From assembly GCA_964017235.1 (NCBI GenBank), contig OZ024927.1, positions 57,913,293-57,977,292 of the forward strand: a stretch of DNA of 64,000 nt. Reading direction: 5' to 3'. The stretch's first letter is position 1, and each line of letters opens with the position of its first letter. The position numbers were made by a program, and so were the translations under genes. The notes beneath the pieces are model-generated. The model saw nothing but the letters and a program-made list of their open reading frames with translations, made no database searches and had not been told where the DNA came from. This document shows, piece by piece, positions 12,801 through 53,059 of the stretch. The stretch comes from Sabellastarte sp. h YS-2021. Its lineage: Eukaryota > Annelida > Polychaeta > Sabellida > Sabellidae.

Positions 12801-15800
12801 TTTGCTCTAAAATGTTTCCTATTCAAAGTTTATCTCATACAATACATGTCAGTAGATAGAGTCCATATGGGCACTTTTAGCCTTTTTTAAAAAATCCCTT
12901 TTATTGTGTACTTTCTAGGAGCAGAGCTGAAGTATTTCTGTGATATGTGTTGCTTTGTGTCAGATACTGTGAGTAAATTAAAGCGACATAAGCTGACTCA
13001 TTCCAAGCTGAAGCCTTACATCTGTGGTAGGTGCTTTGTGGTATACCTTCATGTCCTTGTAATGTCCATATTTTTTTACTAGACTTGTGATAAATTAATT
13101 AATTTTTATTATGTCAGCTGACTTGTCAGTCAGCTGACATTATGACATCCCTCTGCGTTGTCTGCATCCATGTTCGCATCCATGTGAACAACTTCTCCTC
13201 CAAAAGTACAAGGCCCAGAGACCTGCTGTTTCTTTTTACCTTATCTATCAAGGATAAAAGATTGTTCAATACATGCAGATCTGTATTTTTGTCTGTTCCT
13301 CAGAGCCAATACAAGCAAGATACCCCCACCCAAAGTGTGAATATTTCAACACTTTGTCACAATTTTCTCACTGACTGTTGGAAGAGATTTGTCTCTTATC
13401 TTGTATATATGTACTTAGCCACAAGTAGATTCATTTGTGTGAGTATCAGGCCTGGATCTTTTAAAAACATTTTGTAATGAATTTTTAAAATAATTTTTAA
13501 TGCATTAAAATTCATGAAATCGTGCACTAAATCACTTATAACTTGAAAAGTATTGCATTTTGTTAAAATATGTTGTTCAGCTAGTTTTTACTTTGCTACA
13601 ATATGTTGAGTAACTTGGGAATCTATCCCAATCAATAAGCTAAGTGAGTAATGGTACTTTCTGACTTTTCAATATGTTCCCTAATGAGTAAAATCACTTT
13701 TAACTTGAAAACTATTGTATTTAGAGCATTTTGTTGAATACATTGTTCAGCTACTTTCTCCATAGCTACAACGTGGTCAGAAATCTGGAAGTCTATCTCC
13801 ATAGCTAAGTGAATAATATTTACTTTCACACTTTTCAGCAGTTACCTAATGAGTAAATGGCTTATAACTTCAAAATTATTGCAGCTTCGCAATTTGTTTT
13901 GGAGGTGTTGTTCATGAACAGTAGTATATTGAAGTTTCAAAGTTGTTGCTCCATATATAAGTGTGTAATGGCTACTTTTGTTATGGCATGGTGGAGTAAA
14001 TTGTATATATCTAGAACAACCAGGTCCTCAGTAGCTTCTTAGGAAATAACTTAACAGTTCACTTTCTACTTTACTGCTTAGGAAATAACTTAACAGTTCA
14101 CTTTCTACTTTACTTCTTAGGAAATAACTTTTTTAACAGTTCACTTTCTACTTTAGTTCTGAATACCATTTGCAGCACACAACCTTTGTGTCCTTTACTA
14201 CTGTTACTTGTAACCCGAAGCTCAGAACACAAAGTCAGCTGACACAGGGCCCATTCACAGACACTAATTGCTTGTTGTTATGGCAGTTAACTTTTTGACA
14301 CAAGTAGAAAAAATATAGGCCTCATATAGGACCTGTCTTTATTGGAACAGAGAAGTGTCTTTAAAATGTAAATATTATATAATAAATATTATATTTTAAA
14401 ATTTAAAAATAAGACTTTCAGACAACAAAAAGTCTACTCAATAATTTTTCAGCCCATAATCACATCATTTCCTCAACTTCAATGGATAAATGACTTTGTG
14501 AATAAAAATTGTATTAGATCAGATTTCTCATTTAATGACTTAGATTGAGTGTTGACATCAGTCACCTTTCATTCTACCTTTCAAAAAATTATTTATAAAA
14601 AGTCAGAAAGAGACAGTGTAGCGGCTATTGAGTGTATAATTGAATTTTACATTGAAAATATATCTTGTTAGTTCTAGTGATATATTGACTCATCTGAAGG
14701 ATGTTAGTTCAGCTGTTACTTTTCTCTCTCACATGATTCTGATGTTTTGCAAGGCTTTAATGTGTGTTTTTACATTTCTTATATCATTCTGATAAATACA
14801 CTCTATTAAACTGTAATATGTCCCTGTCCTCTTTCTCTGTGTATTAGATATGACGCCCCCTCTTGAAGGTGATACACATGTGTGTGTAATTAGTCCACTG
14901 TTTACCATTTTCCAGTAAGCATGTTTATTGTATAATTTTTTATTATCCACCGTGCGACGTATTTGACCCATATAGAGGGATATACGGAGCAGGATATATT
15001 TTATTTGTATACAAGGGCACCTCCATACCATGGATAACTAGTGTCAACAACTTCCGTTTTTCACCAATATCTCAGAAACTATGTTGCCTACAAATATGTA
15101 TTATATATCATTAGAAAGGTGGTTTCATAACGCTTCTTGCCATGTGTGCTGCATAAAAATCCATGCAGAAATAAAGGAGCTATTGCAAGTTAAAGACTGA
15201 AGTTTTTATATTCACTGTTGCCTTTGCTTTTTGAAAGCCTTTTCAGATTCTCTTATTAAATATTCATGTTATTTAACCCTTAAATCATACAAAATGGTGG
15301 ATAACAAAAGTAAAACATCCCTCATTGGACATATACAGAAAAAATATATCACTCATGAAGATTTACAATATAATACTTGTGCTGCGCATTCGTTTAATAT
15401 AATTGTTATTTTCATTTGTGATAAATTTTTTCTGTATATGTCATTCGGTAAGTTTTCCTATTGTATAATCATAGACAATAGTTGGCTCAAATGTTTGGAA
15501 ATAATTAGCTGTTTTCCAATGTCTGTGTTATAAAAAGTTCACATTTAAGTTCAAAGTGATTTGCTGGTTTAAAGTGGGAAAATAGTTTACAAATCTTTAT
15601 ACTGCCTGCAAATCCTGGCCAAAAGTAGAACTTTGTCTTAAGAGATTACAGTAACTGAAATTGTAGATATTAAATGTGTGTTAAAGCTTGAAATTAAGTT
15701 TTAAGTCTGAAAATTGTAGCTTGGATTTTGGGCTTTAAACCTCAGTAGCAAATGTACTACTGTTTATAGTTACTATTTTTTCATTTCTATTTTAAAATTA

Positions 15801-17773
15801 AAATTTCTAATTATTTTACAGCCTTGTGTGGGTACCGCTCCAATCAGAAGGATCACATACTTCGTCACATGAAAGCAAAGCATCCCGGAACCAATGATAG
15901 AGCCACACATGTTCAACTCTGTCACAAACCCTACCTACAGTTGGAAAGACCCAGTACTAATCCTGACACACAACTCAAACCTTGTCAAAGTCACAGCCAA
16001 CAATTAGAACAGTTCAGTAATGATAAGCTAATCCACTCATGTCAAAATCACAAGCCCAGCCAACAAAAATTGGATAAACACAATGATAAAGCTATGCAAC
16101 AAACAGAAGTTCATAATAGTGCAAATGTTAATAATACTTTGTCAAGTTGTCCTCAAAGTGCAGGTCAATCAGCAGTAAAGAGTAACCTATATGTTGAAGC
16201 AATCTCTTCAGCCAAAGAATCTGGAAATGAATGGTTAAATCCAACAGTTACAGACCTCATGTTTGCATTGAGTGAAAACACAGCCAATTCACTGCCTTGT
16301 ATTTTACTGCCTGAAGGCACAGATTTTTCAAACACAAATTTTGTGATTGTGAAAGAAATTGACTCTCCATCAGTGCCTGAAGAAACAGAATCTACCTTTC
16401 CCGCAGTAATATCTGGTAATACTGGTGTTTTTGACCAAAATAAACAAATTGGATTGTCTACAAAAATATCAAATGAGGGAGCAGATGGTGCAAGTGGATC
16501 CAATGATTGTATGTGTTATGTGAATACTGGAGACTCTGATAAGTTTGGTGAGATGGATGTTTTTGGAAAAGATATGGCTTACGGATCCTTAAGTGAAAAA
16601 TTGAAGGAAGATAAGGCAGACGGCGATGGAAGCGGTCATGCTGAAAGGACGTTTACCTGTCATTTTGAGAGGGACCAAAGAAATGAGGTAGTTGGTGGCA
16701 ATGCTTCTAGTAAGAGTAATCAGTTGAATTGTGTTGTTGATAATGGTAGTACTAGTACCAATAATGCAAACAGTGTCAGCCATATGTTATCTAAAGCGGT
16801 TGGAAATGATGCCTTGAGCAGGGAAGTTTCTCCTGAAGGAAGGAAAATGAGTGCACCTGAGAACATAAGCACTGAACCAGCAGTAGAAGTGTACATGATG
16901 AACAAAGACACCCTTCTGGTGCAAGATACTGAAAACCCTTATGTATTCTATCATGTGCATGAACAACAGGAAGTCCAGTCAAATTCATCAGCAAAAGATA
17001 TTGGCAGCATGAATGATAGTGAAGCCACAAAGGATGGAGAAATAAATGGCAAGTCAAGGGTAATGGGCCAAAAGTTTGGTGTAAACAAACAGAATACAAG
17101 TTTTCACCAATCAGGATTAGTCTGGGAAGAGGAAGATGAAAAATACAGAAGAGATAGTGGAGACAGAGAAACTAAAACTTCTAGCAAGGTATTGGAAAAT
17201 GAAACTGAAACTGCTCCTTGTAATGGCATAACACAGCTTAGTATGTTGAAATGTGGAACTGCGTGTGTATCCCAAACTCACATGTTTGGAGAAAGAACAT
17301 TATTAAATGATAGCATAAGTCCTATCAAGAACAAGACCATACAGCTGGACGTTTCAGAAAATGGAACTGTTCCAAGGGAAGCATCAACTAAAGATCCAAT
17401 ATCTCAAAGTGAAAGTAAAAATATGTTCTGTAATGATATGGAAGATAATACAGAATCAAAAGCCTTACAAAATGAAAGTAAAAGCATCTTACGATACAAA
17501 AAACAGGACAAGAGGTGCCAGAAAGAAAGCTTCAAAAATAAGAATACCAACTGGCGACAGGGTGACAAGAGTTTTACTTGTACGTTTTGTAAGATGGCAT
17601 TCTGCAAGGCTATCAGCTTGTACAAACACGTGCATGAACAACATAATACACATGTAGAAACACGTGATACTATCAAGTGGAAATGTGTGGTGTGTAGATA
17701 CACATGTAAACAGAGAAATACTCTTCTCAGACACATGCGAACACACAAAACTGATCACAGTTGTAATCCATAA
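6759..17773 (+). CDS. C2H2 zinc-finger protein, 5' end missing
   Basis: Three plus-strand exons join in frame: 6759-6837, 12919-13026 and 15822-17773 (stop TAA). Each of the first two codes one classical C2H2 finger with C-x2-C-x12-H-x3-H spacing. The third opens with a finger (CALC, then H-x4-H), runs through about 530 residues rich in Ser, Asn, Glu, Asp and Lys with no recognisable domain, and closes with two fingers at about 17574-17640 and 17682-17745. At least five fingers arranged as a cluster, a disordered linker and a terminal pair suggest a nuclear sequence-specific DNA-binding regulator; that role is inferred from the family. The first visible exon begins at a splice acceptor, so the start codon and perhaps more fingers lie upstream, either before the window or undetected. 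A 5.7-kb MULE sits in the upstream intron. I cannot assign an orthologue. A possible poly(A) signal ATTAAA lies at 17874. Confidence 0.85.
6883..8434 (+). mobile_element. Element with GTCAGCTGAC termini and ~155-bp tandem core, copy A
   Basis: The left end carries the self-palindrome GTCAGCTGAC twice (6886-6895 and 6902-6911). The right end carries it once (8391-8400), followed by CCATTCACGGGCACTGATTG and CTTGTT. Copy B at 13111-14276 has the same ends, which sets the boundaries. The interior is mostly a tandem array (7011-8290). Palindromic ends around a ~160-bp tandem core resemble the non-autonomous pearl/Helentron-type elements known from bivalves; that family assignment is inference. It lies in the intron only 46 bp after the first zinc-finger exon. 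Confidence 0.6.
7011..8290 (+). repeat. ~155-bp tandem repeat core of copy A, about eight units
   Basis: Units begin with variants of AGCTACTTTCAGGTTCTCAC at about 7011, 7253, 7408, 7563, 7720, 7882, 8037 and 8192. Each continues with GTTGAGTAAATCAGTTGTAA, then CTATTGCATTTACAGTATTT, then TAGCTCATTGCATAGCTGAG. Spacing is 151-162 bp except for the first interval (242 bp), which holds an extra partial unit. Confidence 0.85.
8435..8925. other. Intron sequence, nothing recognised
   Basis: AT-rich zinc-finger intron between the two repeats of the first pair. It is not similar to the matching stretch 14277-14938. Short open frames here have no coding features. Confidence 0.5.
8926..9460. repeat. 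Dispersed repeat with TTTATTATCCACC / GGTGGATAATAAA inverted ends, copy A
   Basis: TTTATTATCCACC (8926-8938) and GGTGGATAATAAA (9284-9296) form inverted ends around 371 bp that begins with a GTATTTGACCCAAATAGGG motif. Similarity to copy B (14939-15470) continues past the right end into a ~140-bp segment with its own hairpin: GACATATACAAAAATATA at about 9321 pairs with TATATCTTTTCTGTATATGTC ending at about 9434. It looks like a miniature inverted-repeat element plus an adjoining hairpin that travel together. No coding content. Confidence 0.6.
9461..11139. other. AT-rich intron with a poly(A) run
   Basis: No gene or recognisable transposon was seen. The only landmark is an uninterrupted run of about 22 A at roughly 10840-10862, which could be the tail of an unrecognised retroelement copy or a simple slippage tract. 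Confidence 0.5.
11140..12085 (+). mobile_element. CR1/L2-like LINE remnant, 3' part
   Basis: Translation gives the end of a reverse transcriptase: LNLNPDKTEFIIFGSK, then VVRNLGVWFD, then in other frames ANTTKFSHITSVGKTLQWL, FDAPKIWNDL and a final segment like SLLSFRRMLNTHLFAKAY. The 3' end near GATTAAGCACTGTAAAATT is typical of this group. Several frame changes break it. The family differs from the LINE at 2850-5327 but matches the fragment at 51090-51330 (both have PDKxEFIIFG and KNLGVWFD). Confidence 0.7.
12086..12548. other. Intron sequence, nothing recognised
   Basis: Zinc-finger intron between the LINE remnant and the SINE. Alternating GTTTTAAT and CAGTTAC motifs hint at an old local repeat at 12170-12340 but no unit can be fixed. 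Confidence 0.35.
12549..12710 (+). mobile_element. tRNA-derived SINE
   Basis: The sequence opens with GAGGTCCTGAGTGGC and TTTGGCATCTAATCACAGGC, carries a B-box-like GGGTTCAACCCC at about 12617, and ends in the shared tail CCTGTCCCAATGTGACCCTG, then CTGTTGAACGGGATGTAAAA. The same unit occurs inverted at 58325-58475. The tail is common to all SINE families in this window. Confidence 0.7.
12919..13026 (+). CDS. Zinc-finger gene, second visible exon
   Basis: Acceptor CTTTCTAG ends at 12918 and donor GTAGGT starts at 13027. The exon is 108 nt, phase 1 in and phase 1 out. It codes a full finger (CDMC, HKLTH), then a linker with KPY and the first cysteine of the next finger, so that finger is split across the intron and completed by CGYR in the third exon. 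Confidence 0.8.
13530..13880 (+). repeat. ~163-bp tandem core of copy B
   Basis: The phrase CTTATAACTTGAAAAGTATT recurs with changes at about 13532, 13694 and 13858, each followed by GCATTT-, TTGTTCAGCTA- and CATAGCTAAGTGA-like tracts. The unit is related to the 155-bp core unit of copy A. Confidence 0.65.
14035..14155 (+). repeat. ~40-bp triplication
   Basis: CTTAGGAAATAACTTAACAG followed by TTCACTTTCTACTTTA is repeated three times head to tail, the third with a TTT insertion. Copies are nearly identical, so the duplication is recent. Confidence 0.85.
14277..14938. other. Intron sequence, nothing recognised
   Basis: AT-rich stretch between the two repeats of the second pair. No coding or repeat signal was identified. 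Confidence 0.4.
14939..15470. repeat. Dispersed repeat with TTATTATCCACC / GGTGGATAACAAA inverted ends, copy B
   Basis: Same layout as 8926-9460: inverted ends at 14939-14951 and 15297-15309, then a shared extension holding a hairpin (GGACATATACAGAAAAAATA at 15326 pairing with TTTTTTCTGTATATGTC ending at 15442). Short open frames at 14729-15031 and 15231-15533 run through it and are not genes. Confidence 0.6.
15822..17773 (+). CDS. Zinc-finger gene, long last exon
   Basis: Acceptor TATTTTACAG ends at 15821 and the exon enters in phase 1, completing the alanine of CALC. It is open for about 650 codons to TAA at 17771-17773. The middle is of low complexity and acidic; the two C-terminal fingers use CTFC with H-x4-H and CVVC with H-x3-H. 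The protein ends shortly after the last histidine. Confidence 0.88.
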
Positions 17774-19527: not shown

Positions 19528-20175
19528 AATACATCATTACATACAGGCATGTAAACTAAGAAGATTGTATGACAATGGCAATTCATTAAATGAAAACATA
19601 TCTGCAAAAAATATATTGAATTATCCATATGATATTGCATCAAGATTAGCTGACACATCTCACATTTTAGACTATTAATCACAATAAAATATACAACTGT
19701 GGGTAGAAAATTGATTGCTGTATTTTAGTTTCTAAGTTCAACCTACACTAAGGTAATATATCAAAATAAATGAATGCACTGCATTAACTGGGATAAGAAA
19801 TATGAAGTTAGATGTACATAACTCCCTGAAAGTAAAGTTAGATTTTCCAAGTCTAAATGTTCTGTTTTGACTGCGCAAAAACCAAACTGCCAACAATCCT
19901 CAGTTTCTCTTTTCTGTAATTGTAACACTTTCACTTTCTCCCTCTGACTTCTTGGCTTTCCATTAGCAGTTGCTTGCTCATGCCCAGTGATCTCATTGCA
20001 TAATCATGATTCACCTAACCCAGTCATTGTTGGAAGATTGAAAACAGTTTTAGCCACTAGGTTTTTATTTTTTTAATGGAGAGATTATATTTTTACCCCA
20101 CAGCTCTTAAGGGCTGTCAGGGTATTGTTTTCACCCATGGTGTCCAGATGTGTGGGCGGGCAGCAGGAAAAAGTT

Positions 20176-20715
20176 TGTCCGGGCTGTATCTCAGAAATCA
20201 TAAGGTGAAGGAAGTTGATACTGGGTACGGGTATTGGTTAGGGGGTGTAGGTGTGCAACGTCATGGTCTGACCTTGATTTGACCTTTCACCTTACCATAG
20301 TGACCTTGACCCATAAAATCTTGTCTGGCAATATCTCAGAAACGGTAAGGTGTAGGAAGTTGATACTTGGTAGGGATATTGGTTGGGGATTGTAGGTGTG
20401 GTACTTCATTGAGTGACCTTGATATGACCTTTGACCTCGATGTAGTGACCTTGACCTATAAAATTTGGCCTGAGTTATATCTCAGAAACCGTAAGGTGTA
20501 GGAGGTTGATACTTGGTAGGGACATTTTTGTAGGTGTACAATGTCATGGTGTGACCTTGATTTGACCTTTATGGCCTTGCCATAGTGACCTTGAGTTTGA
20601 AAATTATGTCTAGACTATATATCGGAAACTGTAAGGTGTAGGAAGTTTATACTTAGTAGGGATATTGGTTAGGGCTGTAGTTTTGCAATCATGGTGACCT
20701 TTAACCTTGGCTCTG
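20176..20715 (+). repeat. ~144-bp tandem repeat, four units
   Basis: The phrase TATCTCAGAAACSGTAAGGTG recurs at about 20186, 20331, 20475 and 20619, each followed by TAGGAAGTTGATACTTGGTA, GGGATATTGGTTAGGG, TGTAGGTGTGCAA and several TGACCTTGA words. Inverted copies of the same unit lie at 48185-48700. Confidence 0.85.
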
Positions 20716-27893: not shown

Positions 27894-27963
27894 ATGGCGA
27901 GAACTCACAGGACAAAACATCTGACATTGTACTTGGTAGCATTCATATGTTGTTTTACATTGG
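27894..27963 (+). CDS. Secreted-protein gene, exon 1 (signal peptide)
   Basis: ATG at 27894 is the first in an exon that begins after an acceptor at about 27858, so an upstream non-coding exon is likely. The donor is TTGG|GTATGT, with GT at 27964. Seventy coding nucleotides, ending in phase 1. Confidence 0.6.
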
Positions 27964-30900
27964 GTATGTATCCAAAATTTACCCACTTTTATCATAGTGG
28001 TTTCATAATTACCTTCACTAGTAAGTTATGTTTTGGGTGTTTTTTGTCTGTCTGTAAGTTTGTCTGTTTTCACGATAACTCCAAAAGAAAGGTTTGATTA
28101 AAATTTGGGAAAGATCCAGATCATATTCTGGATACAAAATTCCCATTTTACATGTGTTAATGACTATGACTTTCTGGTTGACATTACTCCAAAACTAATG
28201 AGAAGATCTTCATGAATATATTTGCATGGGTAGGTTCTTGGTAAAGGAAGACATGACCACATATTGGGAATGCATCTAAATCATAATCCAGAGACAAAAA
28301 AAATCAGATTTTTTTCAGAAACGCTTCCTGGTAGAGGTCTGTCATTTGAATGCTTTTTTGTTGTTGTTGTTGTTGTTTATCTTTTATTAACTCAATGAAT
28401 TTTGGAAGTCACTTACACCCTTGTCATTTGCTATAATATTTTGTTTTTTTGTTCAAAGTCATAAAACAATTGATAAAACATATAATAGTGTTGAGAGAGT
28501 GTTTTGGTTACACTTGAAACTTCAATTATTTGTACTTTTAATTTGTAGGTTGTAATATGTCATAATAGAATAATGATATGTGGTTTGGGGTGTTGACAGA
28601 CAAAACTTGAAAGTGCAAAAGCATTACTTGATCATCTCCTAATTGGTCATTGTTTGTACTGTACTTTATTCTTCAGGATAAAGACTATACATGTACAGTG
28701 TAAGTTATCTGGATTAAACTATTTCATGTGTGTATATTCCGTCTAACAGTATCAGTTCTGACAATCGGTTCAGGCGGGTGAAAGTAAATTTCACACTTTT
28801 GTGTTTGCCAAGTTACCACTGTTGATATCTACATTTCTGCCCTAGTACAAGAACTGCCGACCACAAACTTAAAATCAGTTACAACTTATATTGCTTTGAC
28901 AAATTTTCCATCCTCTTCTGTTAGATGGTCCCCTGAATGGAGTATCCCGATTAATTGTCTCTACTTCCCACGAGTCTGAGGGCTTAGTGTTGTTAGGCTT
29001 ATCTAATAGGTCACACGATAAATTTTATGCCCCAGGGACAAAGTTTCACAAGTTCAAGTATAATGCAAAATTTCAAGTGCTGGACAAATTAACATCAAGG
29101 TCTTATTTTCCCTAGTGTTCTGATACATTTGACAATGAAGTGTGAGTTGTAGGTCTTGGTTAATTTCCCAGAATTCCTTGTGGTTTGTGTGAGGGTTTGC
29201 TTTTCGCTGAAAAACATACCCACGTGAGAATTTACCTTTCCCTGTCTTTGTCTCAAAATTTAATCCACAATCATACAAATGAATTCTTTGGTTTGTGGTT
29301 ACTCTTGTAAGTTGTTTAGTAACATCAGTAACACAAGGTTACAAAAAATTAGGAAATGAAACTGTGTCAACTTGGATTAATACCATATATTACATGTTTC
29401 TTTTTCAAGGCTGTGTATTTAACACCAGTATCCCTCTTTGGTGTAACTGTCAATTTGTTTTGCACCCTTATTATTGGAGCTGCTGCATTTAGTAATACTT
29501 TGGGTATTCAGTTATAGTAATCTCAAGTATAACTTAAGTTTCATATAAAAATTAATTTTTGAAGTGAATCTTTAATTTCTAATTTAATTTCTGCAAAAGG
29601 GTTTATCTGTCTTCTGTTCACATTGTCTTCTTTTCTTTGGAATGGACAATTTAATTAAATCACATTTCATGTATTAAGGTATATTATTATCACGCTCTGC
29701 AAGGAGTTTAGGAATATTCTATAAACTGAAGTGTAACATGTCTCTTTTGTAATTATCTAAGTCACCAAAGCTAAACTTTAAGCATTTTAGATGAAATTTA
29801 TAACAAGGATAATAAACTAATAATTATTATAGTAACTTGTTTAACCTTTGCATTTTAGGTGCATTCTTTGCCTTGGTGTAGCACTTTCAATGATATGTTT
29901 CCTGAGATTTCAACATCTTAAGAAAAATTGAAGAAATTGAGTTGTCAGTCTTAATTGTAATAATCAACTAATATTAACCGATATCGTTAAATTGGAAATC
30001 AAGGGTGATGCAAGTCTAAAACGATTGTGTGTGTTGCTTCAAATAATTAGAATTTCATATCCTTCATTAGTGTTGTTTTTGTTCAGTTGTGAAAACCCAA
30101 AGTCACTTTAATAACAGTCCACTTCTATACTTGATTTGTAAACAAGTTAGATTAAAACACAAATACAGTGTGATATGAAAAAAAACTAACCGCTAATATT
30201 TAAAACTATTATCAAATCCTTTAAAAAACTTATCTCCATTTTCCAGTTGAAGGATTTTTCTCATAAATCCTGTAATATTCCATAAACAGATATTTCAGTC
30301 ATTTGTTTCATGTGTTTGAAACATTATCGTTTCCAGTATTTACAAGAAAATTTACAAATCTAGTTCTCTTATAAAAAGGTGTTTCAAATTAAGTTTTACT
30401 AAGACTTTTCTTATAATTTCCTTGATATAACTTAACATAGACTATTGGCAGCTAAAACTTACTAAGAGGACTTTCTGTTATATTAACATACAGCCAATCA
30501 TTGCATAGCATACAAAGCTTTATTTCATGTATTAGTTAGTTTGATTGGTTAGAGTTTAGAATTATTGTTTGTCGCTTGCCTTTCTTGCTTTTCACCCATT
30601 GTTGAAAATTCATGTTCCTCCAAGTCCCTTCTTTGGACCACAGAGACTCAGTCAATGAGTCAAGTTGCATCAGGATTTTGGAACTCTCTCCCTCTTTGTA
30701 TGAGAACCAGTCAATAAGTAATGTTCTTTATGCGGCCAAATATCAAACTTCCTCACTTAGTATCTTCTCCTTACTCACACCCACAGCCCTGAATTACTGA
30801 CGCAGAATGTTCCTTGGATTGTGTAATCGTTAAATCAGAAACATTGCAGGGATCGGCACCACGGGAGAAAGGTTGAAACAAGGTCAGAAAATCTAGGGTG

Positions 30901-33900
30901 GGTAAGCTTTTGCAAAGAAATGGGTTTTCAACTTCTTCCTGAATGAAGAGCGAGATTAGATTAGATTAAGCATTTATGTCCGTTGATTCGAGTGTAGGTA
31001 CTGGCAACAACTTTACTTCCTTTTTTACTGTGGACTTTAAACCCCCTGTCACACCAAAGGGTTTTATGAAATAAAGCTGTTTGTGCACACGAATGGCAGT
31101 CTGGGCAGCCTACTGTTTCTCTCTCAGCTGATGCTTAAGTAGTGTTTACACTTTTGTTTACATAGTTTATATAGAAATCAAAAGTTATGCTTTTATTTTT
31201 AAAATTCCTCCTTCGCATGTGAAGAATAGGTACCAAAGAGGCATCACTGGCAAAAACACAAATATAAGCAAATACTCCCCACTCGTCTTTATTATCACCC
31301 TTGCCCCTCCCCTTGATTCCCCTTTCCCACTACATGTGGTATACCCCAAGGTTATAAGATTTGGTGTATCCATAAGGACAGACACGCATGGACAATGATG
31401 GGATATGGTGTGTAACTGTCAATAACACATGTTAGGCACTGAGATGCAACCTCCATTAACCTCAACTCACCTTTGGTAGCTGTCGCATGAACACGTGCTA
31501 CTGAAATGAGAACGAGTCACATCCTAAAAAAACACAGGCCACACCTTTATTTTCCATATGAAAAATTTATCTGTGGAAGGCCATTGAAATGGACAGACAG
31601 GGATGGGGACACACATATAAAGGGATGGTGATAGGGTGGAAAAGACAGGGTGACTGAGGGTTAATGACAGTGAGTAACAGTTACAAATGCAGAGGTGGAA
31701 ATTTTAAGCATTTCAAAACTTCTGTGGAACTCTCAAGGAATGGGCAGGCGGGTCACTGTATCACAAATTTGCATATGAATGTCAGGCGATAGTTGAAGGA
31801 CAGGGGCGTTTTGCCCAATGCCTATAACCGTGGATTATACCGTCTGTAGTGTGAAAGGGGTTTCAGGGAATGAGAGTATTGTAATGAGCTCTGTTTGTCT
31901 GTCTGTCCATGGGCACAACTCAAAAACTACACATTCCATATGGGTCATAATGTTACAAGTGGTGGTATCAAACATTGGCTCAGCCCTTCATAAAGATAGT
32001 CTGAATCTGGAAGAATTTTTCGTCATCTGAAATTTTTGGTTGCATTTAAGATGGGGTTAAAAAGTTTAGCACATGTTAAGCTCAAGTGTGTAGGTTATAA
32101 ATCCTGAATTTGCAAATGGCATCTCGCATATCTTTATTTCCTGAATGGAGCTTACTTTTTTAGGTCATTTATCCCACATTTCTTTTTTCACAGTTTAAGA
32201 CATATTCAAACCATAACGTCAGTGTGACCGAGACTTAAAGCGTGTGTTGAATTACCACAAGTTGCTGACACACGTGACGAATTATTCTATTTGATTTCCA
32301 GGACACTTAAACCACTTAAGTGTGTGTGCTGCTCAGTCATGTTCATCACCTAATCAAGTTAATCACTTGCATTTTGTGCCACCATGAAACCTTCTTCATA
32401 AACAAAGTTAATTTTAGAAAATGGTTTATTATTGCAAGCACTTAATTCACTGGCCTTAATAGAAATACAGCCTGTCTTGACTTTTTTCGGACAGGTGATG
32501 GACCCTGCTGGCTAAACTGTTTATAATTTGAATCTGGGAAAATTCAGCCTTTATATATATGTTGCAGTCAGTTATGGCTTCCATTTTATTTCTAAATTTC
32601 CAATATTTTACTTCTTAGATAGAAAATGGACGGCGGTGAAAGCAGGTGCAATAGAGTCGGAAAGGTGAGTCTTTCCTGTCTGAGACGCAGAGATTTGGGG
32701 TTATATTTTACAAGGGTAAAGTCATTCCCTCGCAAGAAAATGTTCCTGCAGGAAACTGCTGCTTGGCATCGTTGAAGTAACTTGCCACAAAGCTCAACTT
32801 GGCACAAACCGGAAGACAGAATATTTATTGACAATTGGATATAATCCTCCCCACCTTGAGCAGATGTATCAATGTCATATTTGGTAGCCAAAGTGACGGA
32901 AATAAATACTCTTCTTCATATAAGTGTGCCAAGTGGGTGGCTCTGATATTCAGTAAATATTATATTATCACACGTTAAAACGAATCTAAAAGGTTTATTG
33001 TTTTGATCTTATGTTAGTAAAATATATTTAACTTGAGCTTGTGTCAATGCATACTTTAACTAAGAGAAGCTCCCGTAACCACACTTAAAAGAAACAAAAA
33101 TAAGGCCTTTGTGTCAATTTGCGGATGTCAGCTGTATAGTGTCTACAGCTTATATGATATAGCCTATATTTGACCTTTATACTTTAACTTGCAGACATTT
33201 TCAAATTAATATCCTTAAACATGTATAGCAATATACATTACATATGTATTATAATTATTTACATTAATATATGACCAAGTGATGTACATTAATACAAAAA
33301 TTGTGAAATGTAGGCTTTGTTCAATTCCCAGATCCCTTGTGGTTTCTGTGAGTGTTTGTTTTCACTGAAATACATATCCACGTGAGGATTGGACAGAGTG
33401 GTTGATTAAAAAGTGCAGTTTTATATATCTGTGTTACAGATGATGACTTCGTTTCAGTTCCAGATAGAAAAAAAACTCTTTCAAGTTCATATTTTATTTT
33501 TAAACAAAGCTTCAAAACCTTTAAAACCTTAGACTGTTAATATATTTGTCAGTATTAATAAATCTGTCTGCACCACAAGAAATATAAATTCACATGTAAA
33601 AAAGCATTTTGAGCAAGATTATCCATCACTTAGGTGATAGACAATGAAATTTATCAAGGAAACCAGTTAAAGAACAGCTTCTTCCCATTTATTTAGATGC
33701 ATATACAATTGGACATATTGCCATAAGGAGCTACCTTTTTAAATTTTTTAACAATGGAGATACATATGGATGTTTGCATCTGCAGTTACATTTATAAATT
33801 AATAGATATCGTTATAATACGTTTACGGAAGTTGACATGTGTTGTTACATTTATAAATTAATATTATAAATACATACAAATGCAATTTCTGTCTTATATT

Positions 33901-34681
33901 GCAGTCATCAAAAATATTTCAAGATTTATGTTTTATCAACAATTAATTCAGTTTGGTAACTTGGATAGATTACAACTAATAAAGTAGTTTATGAAGTTCA
34001 TCCTGATATTTTATGTTGTATTTGTGTTCCTAGCATGATGAACAAACTGGATGTCCAAAGATTCAATGAAGTAATACAGCAACACTTAAGTAGATGTGGT
34101 CTATATGAGGAGACTAGATTGTTTTATGAATGCATAAAACCATTACTGAATATCGTGGCCAATCTACCCAGAGATATCTATCCCTGGTCAGCATCCTTCG
34201 ACAACCCACCAGACGTATCAGTCCAGAAAGAATCTGTCCAATCTAGCACAGTTTCAGATACAGCTACACAATCCTGGAGGCTCATTGAAAACTGCTTAAA
34301 TATTTGCCATCAATTGTATCCAACTTACAAAAACTGCCTAGGACTTTGCCAGCAAGGAATTAGTGAAATTTATACACAATATAACCAAAGATCCATTCAG
34401 TGCTCAATGCCACCATGTGAAAAGTCAGGTATAAAGTTACTGTCACCAAGAGAGTAGGGTCACTATGTCCATTAGGAAATTGTAAAGACGCTCCTGAATA
34501 TTTTACAAGCAGTACACTAGAGGGTGAGAAGTGTCTTGGGGGCAGCTGCCATGTAAGTAGAGCTCAGAAAAGAAAGTGGGGAGAAACCCTGAGTTCTTGC
34601 ATCTTTGCGTATTGTAAAGGACTTAGTGGTTCTAATAGAAGGAACTGCATCATCAACAATTGTCACCAAAACAAGAACTAA
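27894..34681 (+). CDS. Secreted protein with repeated C-x4-C pairs, three exons
   Basis: Exons 27894-27963, 32619-32664 and 34034-34681 join in phase (1, then 2). The first gives a signal peptide: a basic start (MARTHRTKHL) and a hydrophobic core (LYLVAFICCF). The second adds a short linker. The third has about 215 residues with C-x3-C pairs (CLNIC, CLGLC) and five C-x4-C pairs: CSMPPC, CPLGNC, CLGGSC, CIFAYC and CIINNC. Sixteen cysteines follow the signal peptide, an even number fitting disulfides, with dibasic KR and RR sites between the later pairs. The family is unknown to me; a peptide precursor or a structural extracellular protein are both possible. One oddity: total exon length is one base short of a multiple of three, and the frame changes once in an A run near 34420, so either a homopolymer base is missing from the assembly or this allele is broken. 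AATAAA lies 46 bp after the stop. Confidence 0.6.
28036..28345 (-). mobile_element. RTE-tail-type dispersed repeat, inverted
   Basis: Reads TTTGTCTGTCTGTAAGTTTG at its left edge, contains AAAGATCCAGATCATATTCTGG and ends CTTCCTGGTAGAGGTCTG. This is the reverse orientation of the repeat family seen at 23059. It lies in intron 1 of the secreted-protein gene, directly after exon 1. Confidence 0.5.
28346..30604. other. Intron 1 of the secreted-protein gene
   Basis: AT-rich. The only internal repeat noticed is an ~80-bp tract at 29155-29235 (AATTTCCCAG, then CTTGTGGTTTGTGTGAGGG, then CCCACGTGAG) that recurs at about 33325-33390 in intron 2 of the same gene. Confidence 0.5.
30605..30830 (+). mobile_element. 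Small LINE C-terminal remnant
   Basis: A short frame reads FWNSLPLCMRTSQ, the usual 'WNSLP..IR..S' region near the end of CR1/L2-type reverse transcriptase proteins. Only about 200 bp is recognisable. Confidence 0.4.
30885..30955 (-). mobile_element. LINE C-terminal remnant, inverted
   Basis: The minus strand reads FRKKLKTHFFAKAYPP, the extreme C-terminus of a CR1/L2-type LINE protein, directly beside the opposite-strand fragment at 30605. Confidence 0.5.
30956..32618. other. Intron 1, remaining part
   Basis: No gene seen. A GTCTGTCTGTCC tract at about 31890 resembles an RTE-associated repeat edge but cannot be bounded. Confidence 0.35.
32619..32664 (+). CDS. Secreted-protein gene, exon 2
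   Basis: A 46-nt micro-exon between acceptor TTTTACTTCTTAG and a consensus donor AAAG|GTGAGT. Read in the phase left by exon 1 it gives DRKWTAVKAGAIESE and leaves two bases that exon 3 completes as serine. It is far too short for ORF-based detection. Confidence 0.55.
32665..34033. other. Intron 2 of the secreted-protein gene
   Basis: AT-rich. It contains the second copy of the ~80-bp tract mentioned at 29155, and nearly identical phrases TTACATTTATAAATTAATA at about 33786 and 33847. Confidence 0.5.
34034..34681 (+). CDS. Secreted-protein gene, exon 3 (cysteine-rich)
   Basis: Acceptor GTGTTCCTAG ends at 34033; only the phase left by exon 2 keeps the exon open. The first part runs open to 34457. 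The second part, in the next frame, is open from 34421 to the TAA at 34679-34681 with no stop in 86 codons, and carries four of the five C-x4-C pairs. The two parts overlap by about 37 bp. A normal intron there would be only about 20 nt, so splicing is an unlikely explanation for the frame change. Confidence 0.6.
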
Positions 34682-34726: not shown

Positions 34727-34732
34727 AATAAA
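34727..34732 (+). other. Poly(A) signal AATAAA
   Basis: Canonical hexamer 46 bp beyond the stop of the secreted-protein gene, in a position that supports this as the true 3' end. Confidence 0.65.
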
Positions 34733-35306
34733 ACGAGGATTATGTACCAATAGTGACATATATTTTTGTAAGCCACAGAAGTGCAAAATATTTGGCAGCT
34801 TTTTATTTCAGTTATCTTCAAATTTATACAATACTTTTAATTTTCCCAAGAACTGTGTACATGCGATTTTTGAAAATAAATGATGATGTGTGAATGTGTC
34901 CAAACTTGTCACTTGTTCTGAAGGACGCTGTGTCTCAAAACTCTCTCTCTTGAAATAAACTAGATTTTACCGAGGAATTAAATGCAAACTTAAAAAGTGG
35001 TAGTCATCATAAGTTATTATGTTTATATGTTAACGATACCAGAGTTGGTTTAACCAACATACAGATTATCAGACCAAAAAGCCTGTATTTACCAAACCAA
35101 TATGATATGCTCAGATCTAAACCCACTTCAAATTGAACAAAATGCTGGAAAAATTTATATCAGTCAAGAAATAGAGAAGTTGTGTTTTATTTTAACTATA
35201 GCTCCTTTATGTGGGTGTTCCACTGGGGCTGTCTTGTCAGTAACTATGGTCGGGAGCAATGTTTACAAAGTCGGTTAGGATCAGTTGTAGTTTCCCGGGT
35301 TTTTGT

Positions 35307-35725: not shown

Positions 35726-37184
35726 TGTGGTGGTGGATCGGCAAAATATCAAACATGACCTTGGCTCTGCACACTTGGTAACCATCCTGCTGTGTCTCTC
35801 TACATCTTGTTGTAGTCATTTTCCTGTCTTGTCCTATACTGTTGACATCTTGTCAGGAAGCACTTGCCGGCCTGTTGTAGTCATGTACCTGGACACCACT
35901 TTATGACAGGCCATAGACACAAACTGACTGTACCTGGAAGTAAACCGGCCTGTCGTATACATCCCCGACCTGACATGGTCACTTCCCATCAAGATGGGAT
36001 GTCTCCAAGTCTTTGGCTGCAGAGTCGGTAATATCACAGCAGGACAAGCTGGGGACACACCAGGACAAGCCATAAAGAGAAACAGACAATGTAGTTACAG
36101 CAAAAGACAAGCCCGGAAGTGTATAAGACAGGCCATCTTCATTTTACCAACTCATGGCTTGTCGATTATACAATCTCATCTATATAAGGTAAGTTGGTTT
36201 GCGGAAGGCTTTTTTTGGATTTTCAACTCTGACAGATTATACTTGGTAGCATTTAGACAGACTTTTGTTTTTTCACAAATTAACTTAGCATTTAGTGTAG
36301 AAATACAAGTTGGGCTGACTTGCTGCTAGGCTTTTGTTTTTTACATGTGCTGCTGTGATTTGCGAGAGAGAGAGAGGAAGAAGAGAAACATTAGAGGGAG
36401 GAGAAGGAGGAAGCCACAAATAAAACCCAAACACACACACAAAAAAACCAAAACAAAATGAGTATTTGAACATTTGAAATTAAAAAAATTCAAGTAAATT
36501 AAACATGGACTTAAAAGATTTTGAACTTTGAAAAAAAAACAATATAAAATTTTGGAATAAGAACTTAAAAAAAATGAAACTTTGGTAAAAAACAACTTTG
36601 AAAAAGAACTAGTAACACTTTGACATTTAAGAATATTTGACGTTTTTGGGAATGATTTTTACCTTTGGATCCTACGTTTTGACTTTAGACATTTGACAAA
36701 CTTTTGAAATTCTAAAAAGATTTTGATAGTTAAGAAAGTTTTCAACTAGCAAATATTGTGCAAATTTGCTGGAAAAAAATGAAAAAAATATCTGTTTACT
36801 TTGATGAAGGTTTATCAAATTTGATTTTTAATGTGTGACATTTTCACGTAACTTGTGTTGAAGTTATTCAACAGTATAATGGGACTTGTGATTTCTTAGG
36901 AGATAGTTTGGAAACTTGTTGGAAATGTATTGGATTTGGGAGGAAATTTGTTGGGAATTTGTGCAACACTGGCTTAAATAAAAGTTCTGAAAAGGACTGA
37001 TGCCAGTTTCTTCGGTCCCGAGTTCCTCTTTACATCTCAGATCCTATCCTCCTGCCCAGCCAATCAACCAAGATGATTGGAGTAATCTTTCATTAGGTCT
37101 TGCTGATGTTTGGCCTTCCTCAAAGGATTCCTGTAGTTGTCATCGGACACATACACCAACTGTTCATTTTAGGGCTGCTATGTC
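35726..37184. other. Non-coding part of the Harbinger element
   Basis: 36360-36420 is a purine-rich tract. 36460-36640 is a run of ACTTTGAAAAA-like words on an A-rich background. Short minus-strand frames here come from low-complexity sequence. Confidence 0.5.
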
Positions 37185-38000
37185 ATCTGCTGAGTTGGGT
37201 GCCCTGTCTGTTCCAACATGGTGTGTCCTCAGCATGTTGTGCAACACCACTCATGTCAAAAGAATGTCTGGCAATCTTTGGCCTTTGCCCCATTGTGCCC
37301 AATGAGACCCCAAATCTGCTTGCAAATGCATTCTCCTCAACCCTCCTGCCTGTGGAGACCCTGTAGTTTGCCATTCTCTCTTACCTTGTGAGTTGTCTTA
37401 TGCTGTAGGGTTGCAGAAAGCTATGGCATCAAGACAAAGGCGTTGTCACCCAGCAATAAATAGTGAAAATCTGGTCCTCCCTCTCTCCCCAGGGGTTCAG
37501 GTGCTGGAAGCCCCAAGGTGCCATCCTCGATCTTCTGCTTCAACTTGTTATGATTAAATATTTGTTCATCCGAGGAAGATCCACTTGACCCAAAAACCAA
37601 CCAGACGAATCTGTATTCTGTGTCAACCAAGGCTAACAGCACCAGGGAAAAGAAGCCCTTGCAGTTTTAACATTAACTCCTAGATTTCTTTGGCTTCTTC
37701 ATGGTGATATGTTTTCCATCTAGTGCCCCAAGAACGTGGGGATATTCCATCTGGTTCTGAGCTTTTCCACCTTTTTGCAGTCTTCAGGATTAGTAGGGCA
37801 TGTCATATACTCTTCCTGGAATTCAGCAAGGACGGCCCAGTAGATAACAAGGACATATTTACATATGGTGGTTCGGCCAACCGGCCAGTGATACTGCAAG
37901 TACATGTAGGTTTCTCCTTTTGCAAGGTGTCCCAGCTTTATTGCCAGTTTCAATCCTACTTCTAAGGACTTCCTAAAATAGGTGACTGACTTCAAATTTT
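37185..38000 (-). pseudogene. Decayed HARBI1-type transposase (DDE_Tnp_4)
   Basis: On the minus strand, 37995 to 37720 reads LEVGLKLAIKLGHLAKGETY and then RTRWNIPTFLGH (the 'RWNFPHCCGAIDGKH' region). 37642 to 37421 reads LLALVDTEYRFVWLVFGSSG, then DEQIFNH, then LGDNAF (the 'DAD..F..VD.G..G..SD..IF' and 'GD.AFPL' blocks). 37374 to 37183 gives NYRVSTGRRVEENAFASRF, GTMGQRPK and a VLHNMLR-like end. The order matches the family. Several frame changes and missing pieces, and a truncated N-terminus, mean it is inactive. Confidence 0.8.
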
Positions 38001-38099: not shown

Positions 38100-39372
38100 G
38101 TGTATGCTGACATTTGGGAAATCTTGGTTAAGAATTCATGGCCATCTAACTTTCCACTTCTTTGTGCAAATTGTTAAACTCTTTTTAGACTCTTTATGGT
38201 AATTCTCACATAAAATTTTTCTTACACAATCCTTGGTTCTACTCTTCAGTCAGAAATAAACACATCTCAGGATGAACTGACAAAATCATAAATATGCCTC
38301 CAGTTGAATGATGCAAACAAAACAAATAGTAAAGTATAATCTTTGTACTATTTCTAGCTGTGACATCACAAATCAGTAGAGATCTGAATGTAGTTCTAGT
38401 CTAAGAGAAAGTGTCAACATTTATAGTGTTGAAGTCTTATATTGCTGAGCTAACAGTACTGAAATGTGACAACTTGACCAAAATCAGTCTGGTTCGGCAT
38501 TGCTCCCTTTTGGTTTCAATAGGTTACAAGCAACAATATTAGGGCATGTTCAGGCATAGACACATTCACACTAGTTTTCATAACGCGGAGGAAGGTTTTT
38601 CTCCTGACACTCAGACTAGTGTCTCTGAAGATCTAATAGACTGGTCATATTTGTCCATTTGATCAGATATTAATATGGGTAGTCACATACTTGAACATAG
38701 TTGATGCAATCCTTGTTGAAATGGTAGACCTTGTGATTCCTTTATTTAGTTTAAGTTGTGATATCGCAATCAAAATGTCATTGTCATCAAATGCCATTGT
38801 AAATCGACATATTCGAAACTATGGGCAAGATTAATTCTAATAGTTATAATATTAAAACTAGGGCAATCGCAAAGCATTAGTATTTGAGAACTGTGTAGAA
38901 ATATGTGTAGAACTTTGCATCCTTAAACTGATTTCTTTGGTGTTTCTACCATAAACACATTGGACAAATAAAAATATTCTGACCATGGACAAAAAAGTTT
39001 CAATATAAGACAGTTCCTGGATGTGGAAACACAATTAACAATGAATATGCATTCCAATTATAACACCCTGATAGACAAATAAGATATGAATTACTTGTAT
39101 ATTAATGACGACTGCTCAAAGGTGTATATTCAGATTTTAAAAGTGCACCAATTTTACTACATCCCTACAAACAGCTTGGGAAAATATACTTGTAATATAA
39201 AAATCAGGTATTTTGTTTCAAATCTTCTCAAGATTCTGGCCCAAAATGTAAATTTCATTGATGATGTCTGTTTTTGTCAAAACAACACAAAATAATTAAT
39301 TACTGCATTTTGATTGACCAGGTTAGTTCATTGGAAAACTTTTGTTTGACAGTTTGAAATAGCTTGATTGAA
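38100..39372. other. Non-coding stretch
   Basis: Lies between the Harbinger element and the inverted repeat at 39373. No gene or further repeat was recognised. Confidence 0.4.
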
Positions 39373-41559: not shown

Positions 41560-42280
41560 TGAAGGCAAGTGCAGTGGTTCTACTGCTGCTGCTTGGAGTT
41601 AGCTGACTGCTGGGGAGGCTGATCCTGGGCTGGCTTCTGCTGATGTTCTTGCTGCATGGTGGTGGTTGGAGGAAAGGCAGCTTGTTGATGAGGGTCACTT
41701 GGTGAAAATGGTTGGAATATGTGTTGATGTGCTGGTAGCTCATGATGTACTGTAGATTACCAAAGAAGCTAGAGAATCCTGATATGTTGTGTGAACTTTC
41801 TTGTCCATGGCTTAGGCAACTGACAGTGGGTTGAAGTGCTTCATCGAGGTCAGTGTGAAAGTAAGCGGTCTGGAAGATCCGGCTTGTTAGTCGTCAACAA
41901 CTTTGAAGGAAGTTGGCTGCCCTCTGGGTTGTTGCTGTTCTCTTGGTGCCGTTCTCTTGCATGCTGATCTCCATACTCTCCATGTCAGTTGAACCTCTGG
42001 AGATGTCATATGCTGATGCAGTAGATGCACTGGCTCCTTGGGCCGGGGACTTAAAGCCTGAAGATTTTTTTAGTCCCTTGTGTTTGATGTGTGTCTTCAA
42101 GAAGTTAAATTCATCCTGAATCCAGTTCTGCCTCTCAGGTCTGAATCCAGTTATGTCGGTTAGGTCGGTTATGTTTACAACAGGCCGGATCCTTTCAAGT
42201 ATGGTCGGTTTGTCTATATGCCCTGTCGGGAGGTGGTGTTCAGGTAGTGAACCATAACAGGCCAGCAAGTGCTTCCACAC
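41560..42280 (-). pseudogene. Decayed MADF/SANT-like second gene of a Harbinger element
   Basis: The minus-strand frame 42280 to 41894 contains a weak MADF-type start, then ERQNWIQDEFNFLKTHIKHK and KSSGFKSPAQGASASTAS. Further frames to 41555 give SYQHINTYSNHFHQVTL. The arrangement of a DNA-binding domain, a Ser/Ala linker and a C-terminal tail resembles the Myb/MADF protein that accompanies Harbinger transposases. Stops and frame changes break it. Assignment is by resemblance and position. Confidence 0.5.
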
Positions 42281-42448
42281 AAGACGGTTACAGTATAGGA
42301 CGAGATGGGAAGTATATCTGACTAGCCGTAGAGACTCACAAGAGGATAGTTTTTAGGTGGGCAGAGCCAAGGTCCGGATAAAGAGTTGTGGAAGGTCGAT
42401 GAAATATCAAACATGTTTGATATTTTTCCAATCCACTGTGACAAGCTG

Positions 42449-42681
42449 GTAGTCTTGCTTAAGGCTCAAGTACCCTAGTAATTAAGAGAAAATAAACAGA
42501 AAACATGGTCATTTTGCATAATGTACTCTTACAATTAACATGTACTGGATTTTACACATGATATGGCATAAACTGTCTGCTCAGTTTATATCTCAAAACA
42601 TGCATGAGTGCTTTATGAATACCAAATATCTGTGTACAAGTATGAAACATATGGTACAAATTTGAGCCTTAATCAAGGCTA
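42449..42681. mobile_element. 233-bp miniature element with 9-bp target duplication
   Basis: The direct nonamer ACAAGCTGG flanks it (42440-42448 and 42682-42690). The ends TAGTCTTGCTTAAGGCTCAA and TTGAGCCTTAATCAAGGCTA are inverse with about 17 of 20 matching. It inserted into the Harbinger end at 42358-42769. The duplication length suggests a Mutator-type transposase in trans. Confidence 0.8.
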
Positions 42682-42772
42682 ACAAGCTGGGAAACTACAA
42701 CCGATCCTAACCAACTCTGTAAACATTGGTCATAGTTACCGGCAAGAGGACCCCAGTAGAACACCCCCAATA

Positions 42773-44136
42773 GGAACCATAAGTAGGAGGTTGTCAAATG
42801 GAGCTCAAATACATACAGATATGATGATAAGGCAAGGTTTGCATCTCAGAAGCTGCTAACACAACAATATGTGCTAAATTAAAGAGTGATTAAATTAAAT
42901 GAGACAGCTGCAAGACACATGGAAAACATCTTACCTTGAGATTTAACATTCAGTAGAAATAAAGGACGTAAAGTTACACAATTTTGTCAAACTGCTGCTT
43001 AAAATTATTTTATAAAATTGCAAAACCAACACGTGAGACATGGTTTCACAATATATAATCCTATATTGTATATCTACACAATCGAAGACAAGGTTTTGGA
43101 AGAAACTGAATAATTAAGTGCCCATTTGTTGTAAAATAAACCAACAACGTAAATTAAACAACACCCAGTATTCCTTTATATTTTCACTTTATTGCCAAAA
43201 CTGTGAAACTGAAAGTAAATGTGTTTAATAACTTTTTGACATATTGAAATAAAATCGGATATCGGCACCATTGTGTTCACAACATTTATGTTCAAGTAAA
43301 CTCTGTCCATTAAAGTTTGAGAAAAGATCAATTTTCCAGGATACTTCAAAAGCCCTAAGACAACGAATTAATTTTTAATACACATTTCTTTCACATTTTA
43401 ATGGAAGTAAAATATTATTAAATTTGTGAATATAAAACATATGCCCAGGTACATTAATTACTCAATTATAAGTAATTGATGTGGAAATTATCGACCACTG
43501 TGCCGATTTAAGTTAAGATATTTCATGATGTACACGAAATAGCCTCATACTTCTGGTCCTTCTTCCCAGTATTACACCAATAGCAACCAAATGACAATTG
43601 AGATATTCACCAAAATATCCTCAATCATCAGAGATAGTTCAACTCAATTAGTGTAGCGGTTACATACCTTTGATTTTATCACAGAGACATGTATTATATT
43701 AGTTGAAGTTAAGTTTCATTATGAGAAAATTAAGAGTAATTAACAGAAGAATCTTTACAAGAATACTTTTTCTTTTATTCATAATATATTCTACAAATGT
43801 GATCTCACTGGTCATGAAAAGAGAATGTACAAAATCATATTGTTGAAACATTGAATGATAGACACATCACTTGTAATATCTGCAAGAAATTTGTCAGGTT
43901 CAGTTTTGTATGCACTGCAATAACACAGAAAATAGCATTCATCTTCCATAACCTAAAACAGGTTTTTATATAATAACCTCCCACTTCATCTTGTGATAGT
44001 ACTATTAGTAAACTTCAACCTTTTGCCAAGGAAATGCTATTGCAAAAATCAGACACAAGGAAGGTGTTTAGTGACAAACCCATTGCATTTGTAAATTTTA
44101 TCACAGAAAAAGATTCACTCAAGTGTTCCTCAACCC
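42773..44136. other. 3' flank of DNAL1
   Basis: No gene seen. The inverse poly(A) signal TTTATT at 43774-43779 lies about 360 bp downstream of the DNAL1 stop and may end its transcript. Confidence 0.4.
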
Positions 44137-51805: not shown

Positions 51806-52671
51806 AGTTTTTCCTGATACTTATTTTAGTCTGAAGCTTGTCTAAAAATAACCAACTTCAATTAATGCCAACATTCACAGAAATGAAGTGATTCGCCCAT
51901 TAAAATCCATATGCAACTTTAAAGAAACCTATAATCTGTGCTATCCAGGAATTGTGAACTAGAAATACGAAGTTTTCTTGGTCTTTATGATATTTCTGAT
52001 TGTTCTGTAATATAACCATGTGTAAAATGTCAATGTTTTGGTATTTCAGTTTATGTTTACATCAGTATTGTCAATGGCAATGTTACAGTGATAACCTCAA
52101 AGCGCATGTCCCTTGTATACGTGTTACTTTTCAAACAGATGAAAAGGAATGTAAAGGTCACCTTAATTCAACTGAAAACAAAAAGAAAAATTACATTAAG
52201 CAGTATTTCATGGGTTTTTAGACACTTCTTTAAAACTTGATGAAGTATTATACAATAATTCTGGTGAGATAGCTAAAAACTTTAATTTTTTATTCGTGAA
52301 AAAAATGAAGCTTAAAATATACAAGTCTACTTAAACTCTGAATATCTGATGAAGTGGGCAGAGTATAAAATGACACTAAAGAGATAACAAAGTGATTGTC
52401 ATCTACACGAACACTCTACATATATAAATATATAACACAGACCTCTGTTTAATGTATTGGATTTTGATTATTCAAGTGGCTTGAATGCAAGATCATATAT
52501 GAACTGAGATCGGCAGTCAACATTCAAAAGAGAAGTCCTATTTGATGAAACCCTTCAGTGAATCACAAAGCCATCAAGAAAAACATAAATATTTGGTGTG
52601 ACTTTCCTGTGTGGGAAAATAGATTAGTTAGGAGAGTGAGAGGTGTATAGGAGGGAGGTTCAATTACAAAC
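51800..52671. promoter_or_regulatory. Divergent intergenic region DNAL1 / reductase
   Basis: 872 bp separates the two start codons and no coding sequence or recognised transposon lies between them. Both 5' UTRs and promoters must be here unless non-coding first exons lie elsewhere. No TATA box in a convincing position was identified. Confidence 0.6.
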
Positions 52672-53059
52672 ATGACAAGTAAACCTTTAGTTTATATACA
52701 TTCTACAGTAGATGATGATCCAAGTAGGGGCCTGAAGCAGACTGACCAGGGAATTCTCAATGAATACTTTCACCTGGTAACAGCACAGGATTTGAAAGCA
52801 AATCCAGCCTTGGCAGCACGGATCCAGGGGTCTTTGTACACTGTGGGCATGATGAAAGTATTTCCAGAAATTCTACCCACTATGACGTCACTGCGTGTCC
52901 TCTCTACAATAAGTACAGGCATGGATTGGGTACCTGTTCAGAAGTTCAAGGACATGGGTATTCAAGTGGGATACTACCCAGCAGACAAGCAGCAGAACAA
53001 GACTATCGCTGATTATGCAATGTTACTTTTACTTGCAGTTAGCAGGAGACTTACGGAAG
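52672..53059 (+). CDS. Reductase exon 1
   Basis: ATG at 52672, first in frame after an upstream stop. Donor GAAG|GTATTT. It is 388 nt, ending in phase 1, and codes residues 1-129. Confidence 0.92.

What the first reader, a model, noticed from the sequence alone, without database searches (positions are those of the whole stretch)
27894..34681. Unannotated secreted protein with repeated C-x4-C pairs, hidden in three small exons
A signal-peptide exon, a 46-nt micro-exon and a cysteine-rich last exon fit together in phase with good splice sites and an AATAAA 46 bp past the stop. The mature part has sixteen cysteines, mostly as C-x3-C and C-x4-C pairs, with dibasic sites between the later pairs. 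I know no family with this layout. It could be a multi-peptide precursor or a disulfide-rich extracellular protein. Basis: splice phases and motifs are seen; secretion and function are inferred.
Basis: partly seen in the sequence, partly recalled or inferred. Interest (0 to 1): 0.8.

Follow-up and report, generated by a model that had tools for sequence, protein, structure and literature searches.

The report
Frame-broken cysteine-repeat protein gene

Summary
Partly confirmed. The three exons and their GT/AG ends are there and join in phase; only 2 of 3874 GT sites on the + strand, itself included, score as high as the donor after 32664. But the 16-cysteine protein is not one frame. The spliced frame stops at 34455-34457 after 179 residues, with 8 of the 16 cysteines of E3; the other 8 lie in another frame (34424-34678). 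No in-phase GT-AG intron of 30-200 nt keeps all 16, and no slippery heptamer lies in the overlap. Still, the cysteine order is not chance: the tail runs C-x4-C-x16-C-x4-C-x16-C-x4-C-x10-C-x4-C, a regularity met in 0 of 70,803 simulated ORFs, and the spacing across the seam is one base short of that period. I infer one ancestral cysteine-repeat protein, broken or mis-assembled here. Secretion is inferred: E1/E2 are moderately supported and a rival start sits at 33991. Neither half matches Pfam, NCBIfam, PDB or the prokaryote and viral contigs searched; animal sequences could not be searched. Best reading: orphan secreted disulfide-rich protein, possibly a peptide precursor.

The parts
27894..27963 (+). 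E1: candidate first coding exon with a hydrophobic N-terminus (23 codons plus 1 nt)
   Evidence: hydrophobicity rank 9 of 577 ATGs; 155 of 3874 GT sites, itself included, score at least as high as its donor. Moderate support.
32619..32664 (+). E2: candidate 46-nt middle exon
   Evidence: Donor score reached by 2 of 3874 GT sites, itself included; acceptor score reached by 372 of 3612 AG sites; in phase and open.
33991..34035 (+). Rival signal-peptide-like start (15 codons) in a third frame, directly before the cysteine-rich frame; may be only the translation of a T-rich acceptor tract
   Evidence: Rank 1 of 577 ATGs by hydrophobicity; of 447 comparable T-rich AG tracts on both strands, 9 have such a start at a score of 2.74 or more and 6 at 3.2 or more.
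34034..34457 (+). E3, first frame: N-terminal half with 8 Cys (C-x11-C, C-x3-C-x9-C-x3-C, C-x4-C); stops at TAG 34455-34457
   Evidence: Acceptor score reached by 180 of 3612 AG sites. AlphaFold2 without relatives suggests four helices, at pLDDT 48.
34424..34681 (+). E3, second frame: C-terminal array C-x4-C-x16-C-x4-C-x16-C-x4-C-x10-C-x4-C with KR, KRK and RR in this frame; stop 34679-34681
34424..34457 (+). Overlap of the two frames, within which the frame change must fall; no slippery heptamer, no believable intron that keeps all cysteines
34727..34732 (+). AATAAA polyadenylation signal, 46 nt after the second stop

Best explanation
The stretch 34034-34681 is the last coding exon, or the remains of it, of an animal gene for a secreted, disulfide-rich protein of no recognised family. 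Shown: a regular cysteine array, its division over two frames, and a spacing across the seam one base short of the array's period. Inferred from these: both halves once formed one frame. Inferred: the first half folds as disulfide-pinned helical hairpins; the second half is a tandem array of small C-x4-C loops, each closing its own disulfide; prohormone convertases could cut at KR, KRK and RR and release pieces of 38, 20 and 12 residues with two, one and one loops. In this sequence translation would give only the first half. Whether the break is a true null allele or pseudogene, or an assembly error, is not decided. Most likely role: an orphan extracellular protein or peptide precursor.
For: Regular array: 0 of 70,803 simulated ORFs, 1 of 212 real ORFs of the window; shuffles of the tail: 31 of 200,000 with four equal pair gaps, 1 of 200,000 with equal neighbouring spacers as well. 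Cys codon distances in the tail are 15 and 51 nt with one of 33; the one across the seam is 50 (no control was run for this coincidence). A donor score reached by 2 of 3874 GT sites after 32664 and a good acceptor at 34034. AATAAA 46 nt after the second stop. No family or solved-structure match for either half.
Against: Codon usage does not tell the pieces from background: the share of open background stretches scoring as high is 0.41 (E1), 0.53 (E2), 0.70 (33991 start), 0.39 (first half) and 0.30 (tail). No relative was found, so conservation is untested. The start is not settled. The predicted folds are unreliable (pLDDT 48 and 43). The frame break may mean a dead gene. The controls of the cysteine pattern were designed after the pattern was seen.
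Confidence: 0.5

Rival explanations
1. Sub-case of the best explanation: the break is an assembly error. The living gene is intact and makes the full 16-cysteine protein, by the reader's exons or a nearby start.
For: The offset is a single base and the cysteine period is otherwise exact, as expected if there has been little decay. Each half is stop-free up to its own stop.
Against: 1004 codons of other exons in the window are open, but they were chosen for being open, so this is weak. No reads are available.
Confidence: 0.4
2. Sub-case of the best explanation: a recent pseudogene or null allele of an orphan cysteine-rich gene.
For: A frame break is present. If the start at 33991 is the original one, there are two changes of frame in the same direction.
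Against: No second copy in the window; the cysteine array has not decayed.
Confidence: 0.35
3. Two products by alternative splicing: one ends in the first frame, the other enters the second frame from E2 by an acceptor inside E3 (exon start 34429 or 34453).
For: Both acceptors fit the phase of E2.
Against: Both score poorly: 1299 and 2310 of 3612 AG sites are as good or better. It does not explain why the cysteine period runs across the seam.
Confidence: 0.07
4. A small intron in E3 joins the frames and drops one cysteine pair, for example a 92-nt intron 34429-34520 (14 Cys kept).
For: In phase and open.
Against: Its donor is ordinary (465 of 3874 GT sites as good or better), its acceptor has 9 pyrimidines of 17, and it removes a pair that fits the period.
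Confidence: 0.06
5. The pattern is chance in non-coding DNA.
For: Codon-usage scores are at background level; ORFs of this length arise by chance.
Against: 0 of 70,803 simulated ORFs show the regular array.
Confidence: 0.08

Closest known systems
Cysteine-rich orphan precursors of molluscs (Crassostrea CCCGS, FYFY, GSWN; PMC8398477)
   Same: Secreted or precursor cysteine-rich peptides of unclear function, some known from one species or a few molluscs (section 2.7 read).
   Different: Stated cysteine counts differ (CCCGS 8 in 42 aa, FYFY 10); their sequences are in figures that I could not see, so spacing was not compared.
Prohormone-3 / ITG-like precursors
   Same: Signal peptide plus a cysteine-rich peptide; 16 conserved cysteines are stated in PMC8398477 (section 2.5.4 read), 12 in a lobster sequence in PMC4018349 (passages).
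   Different: Spacing not given in the text that I saw; no match could be tested. The shared number 16 alone means little.
C-x4-C ring peptides of the vasopressin/oxytocin and urotensin II types (recalled)
   Same: Six-residue disulfide ring, released at basic sites from a precursor.
   Different: No glycine before the dibasic sites, several unlike rings, no Pfam match of any kind.
Alpha-hairpinins (short helical peptides with four cysteines and two disulfides; PMC6160967, passages)
   Same: C-x3-C-x9-C-x3-C in the first half recalls their C-x3-C...C-x3-C layout (layout recalled, not in the passages).
   Different: Plant peptides; no sequence match; helices here rest on a model of pLDDT 48.

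Membership tests
Multi-copy neuropeptide or prohormone precursor | Signal peptide | tested here: inconclusive
   E1 hydrophobic (rank 9 of 577), rival start at 33991 (rank 1 of 577); no signal-peptide predictor available.
Multi-copy neuropeptide or prohormone precursor | Dibasic sites flanking repeated similar peptides, in one frame with the N-terminus | tested here: not met
   The dibasic sites are all in the second frame, not continuous with the first half; by eye the loops share the cysteine spacing but not the residues between. So it is not filed as a member.
Multi-copy neuropeptide or prohormone precursor | Amidation glycine before the dibasic site (common, not universal) | tested here: not met
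   Residues before the sites are T, Q and N.
Prohormone-3 / ITG-like | Conserved cysteine spacing and sequence identity | not testable with these tools
   No animal protein collection; no spacing in the text seen.
Alpha-hairpinin fold | Two helices joined by two disulfides between C-x3-C motifs | tested here: inconclusive
   Spacing 3-9-3 present; model unreliable; no Foldseek match with E of 0.001 or less.
Any Pfam-A family | Match to the profile | tested here: not met
   0 families at E of 10 or less for both halves and E1; 0 at E of 1 or less for the stop-to-stop frames.

The most novel reading that the evidence does not exclude
A new animal prohormone family: a disulfide-pinned helical carrier domain followed by a strictly spaced array of C-x4-C ring peptides released by convertases, with a frame change in the array that separates a short from a long product.
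Probability: 0.12. Interest if true: 0.6.

Novelty: new member of a known kind. Interest (0 to 1): 0.3.

Why it matters
If an intact copy is expressed, it would be a secreted disulfide-rich protein with an unusually regular loop array that matches no family searched here, and a candidate source of small ring peptides. For the genome scan, it shows that a gene model read by eye can hide a change of frame: the pattern was real, the continuous protein was not.

Tried and rejected
Intron between the frames: among in-phase GT-AG introns of 20-200 nt, 16-cysteine joins exist only with 26, 29 and 29 nt, too short to be believable. Programmed -1 frameshifting: no X XXY YYZ heptamer among the 13 scanned over the overlap. 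Codon usage trained on other exons of the window: uninformative. Similar copies or the same cysteine motif elsewhere in the window: none; the motif search returned only the tail itself. Structure prediction: two jobs, pLDDT 48 and 43; Foldseek of the first half against the PDB gave 13 matches, none with E of 0.001 or less; the tail model was not searched. Relatives: both halves against genome contigs and viral contigs, none; this method uses six short peptide patterns per query and finds close relatives only. Peptide strings in the paper library: 2 papers, unrelated by their titles. Seven further paper searches showed no precursor with this spacing in their listings; these search words, not sequences, and four listings were capped (20 of 67, 20 of 21, 10 of 15, 10 of 54). 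Passages of PMC6425005 and PMC5996578 gave no such spacing either. A saposin-like hint among the 51 ORFs of at least 70 aa between 17.8 and 44 kb belongs to 39083-39292, below the cut-off, not to this gene.

Full report
What was checked. The joined frame, however, stops at TAG 34455-34457 and yields 179 residues. The dibasic sites (KR, KRK, RR) are all in the second frame. The claim that the exons fit together in phase to one 16-cysteine protein is therefore wrong for the last exon.

Is the pattern real? The cysteine codons lie at nucleotide distances 36, 162, 12, 30, 12, 54, 15, [50], 15, 51, 15, 51, 15, 33, 15, where [50] spans the change of frame. In the tail this is C-x4-C-x16-C-x4-C-x16-C-x4-C-x10-C-x4-C. 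Of 200,000 shuffles of the tail, 31 give four equal pair gaps and 1 also two equal neighbouring spacers. Among 70,803 ORFs of at least 60 aa in 400 Markov windows (200 of order 2, 200 of order 4), none shows an a-b-a-b-a cysteine order, against 1 of 212 in the real window. These controls were designed after seeing the pattern. Weaker measures are less impressive: 2 of 30 Markov windows have an ORF with 4 or more C-x3/4-C pairs, 13 of 30 one with 3 or more, and 23 ORFs of at least 150 aa turn up in the 30. The distance over the seam is one base short of the 51-nt period. I take this as the best sign that the two halves were once one frame; I ran no control for this coincidence.

Can the cell join the frames? 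Of the in-phase GT-AG introns of 20-200 nt between the two frames, those keeping 16 cysteines have lengths 26, 29 and 29 nt. Longer ones lose one or more cysteines; one that keeps 14 (34429-34520) starts at a donor whose score is reached by 465 of 3874 sites. No slippery heptamer is among the 13 scanned over the overlap. Acceptors inside E3 that would bring E2 directly into the second frame score poorly. A change at the DNA level, true or by assembly, is the simplest account. I cannot tell which: no reads, no held genome and no other copy in the window.

Where does the protein start? E1 is hydrophobic (rank 9 of 577 ATGs with at least 14 open codons on the + strand), and only 2 of 3874 GT sites, itself included, score as high as the donor of E2. 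A signal exon plus a middle exon meeting set thresholds can be found upstream of 48 of 900 acceptor-by-phase combinations (38 of 456 on +, 10 of 444 on -). So the three-exon model is better than chance but not secure. A rival is the 15-codon stretch 33991-34035, the most hydrophobic start of the 577, directly before the cysteine-rich frame but in a third frame. It lies in a T-rich acceptor tract; of 447 similar tracts on both strands, 9 have such a start at the lower threshold and 6 at the higher. If it is the original start, there are two changes of frame.

Coding signal. A codon-usage score trained on 1004 codons of other exons did not separate any of the pieces from open background: 0.41, 0.53, 0.70, 0.39 and 0.30 of background stretches score as high as E1, E2, the 33991 start, the first half and the tail. 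The training set is small and two thirds of it is one zinc-finger frame.

What is it? Both halves are without match in Pfam at E of 10 or less, in NCBIfam, a prokaryote library, and in the PDB by sequence, and no close relative was found in the bacterial and archaeal contigs and viral contigs searched. For an animal gene these last results are expected. AlphaFold2 on single sequences proposes four helices for the first half (pLDDT 48) and little that is sure for the tail (43); Foldseek of the first half gives nothing with E of 0.001 or less. The first half is weakly acidic (11 K+R, 13 D+E), the tail basic (14 against 5), with KR, KRK and RR in the spacers and no glycine before them. My best reading is an orphan secreted disulfide-rich protein; cutting of the tail into 38-, 20- and 12-residue ring peptides (lengths counted from the codon positions) is possible and untested. 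Comparable mollusc orphan precursors are described in PMC8398477 (sections 2.5.4 and 2.7 read), but without a spacing that could be compared in the text.

Surroundings. E3 ends 2.7 kb before a DDE_Tnp_4 transposase piece (37424-37666, - strand) and lies near repeats with inverted copies at 42.2-42.8 kb. Of the 51 ORFs of at least 70 aa between 17.8 and 44 kb, Pfam gave seven families at E of 0.05 or less, of which the transposase (2e-6) is the only one below 0.001; twenty of the 51 were rescanned one by one. Exons of a 2-hydroxyacid dehydrogenase lie at 52.6-63.3 kb (the last one also against the PDB). The window looks like ordinary eukaryotic DNA; the phylum was not determined.

Verdict. A real and regular cysteine array, over-read as an intact three-exon gene. 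Interest 0.3: worth one look in transcriptomes, not a finding that stands alone.

Noticed in passing
window 3086-5192 +: Reverse transcriptase (RVT_1, E 1.6e-37, in 3771-5189) of a LINE-like element; by eye its upstream part lies in another frame (3086-3850).
   Followed up: no
window 37424-37666 -: DDE_Tnp_4 transposase piece (E 2e-6, above cut-off), in a region where repeats 35197-35304 and 35757-35974 have inverted copies at 42681-42781 and 42159-42374.
   Followed up: partly
   Followed up: no
window 15770-17773 +: A 667-aa open frame with C2H2 zinc-finger matches below cut-off near its C-terminus.
   Followed up: no
window 52651-63254 +: Exons of a D-2-hydroxyacid dehydrogenase (two above and one just below the Pfam cut-off); the last exon resembles glyoxylate/hydroxypyruvate reductases.
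   Followed up: partly
window 5327-6062, 7165-8283, 20169-20696: Tandem arrays with periods of 147, 155 and 145 nt.
   Followed up: no
window 39083-39292 +: Short ORF with a weak saposin-like match (E 0.0057, below cut-off).
   Followed up: no
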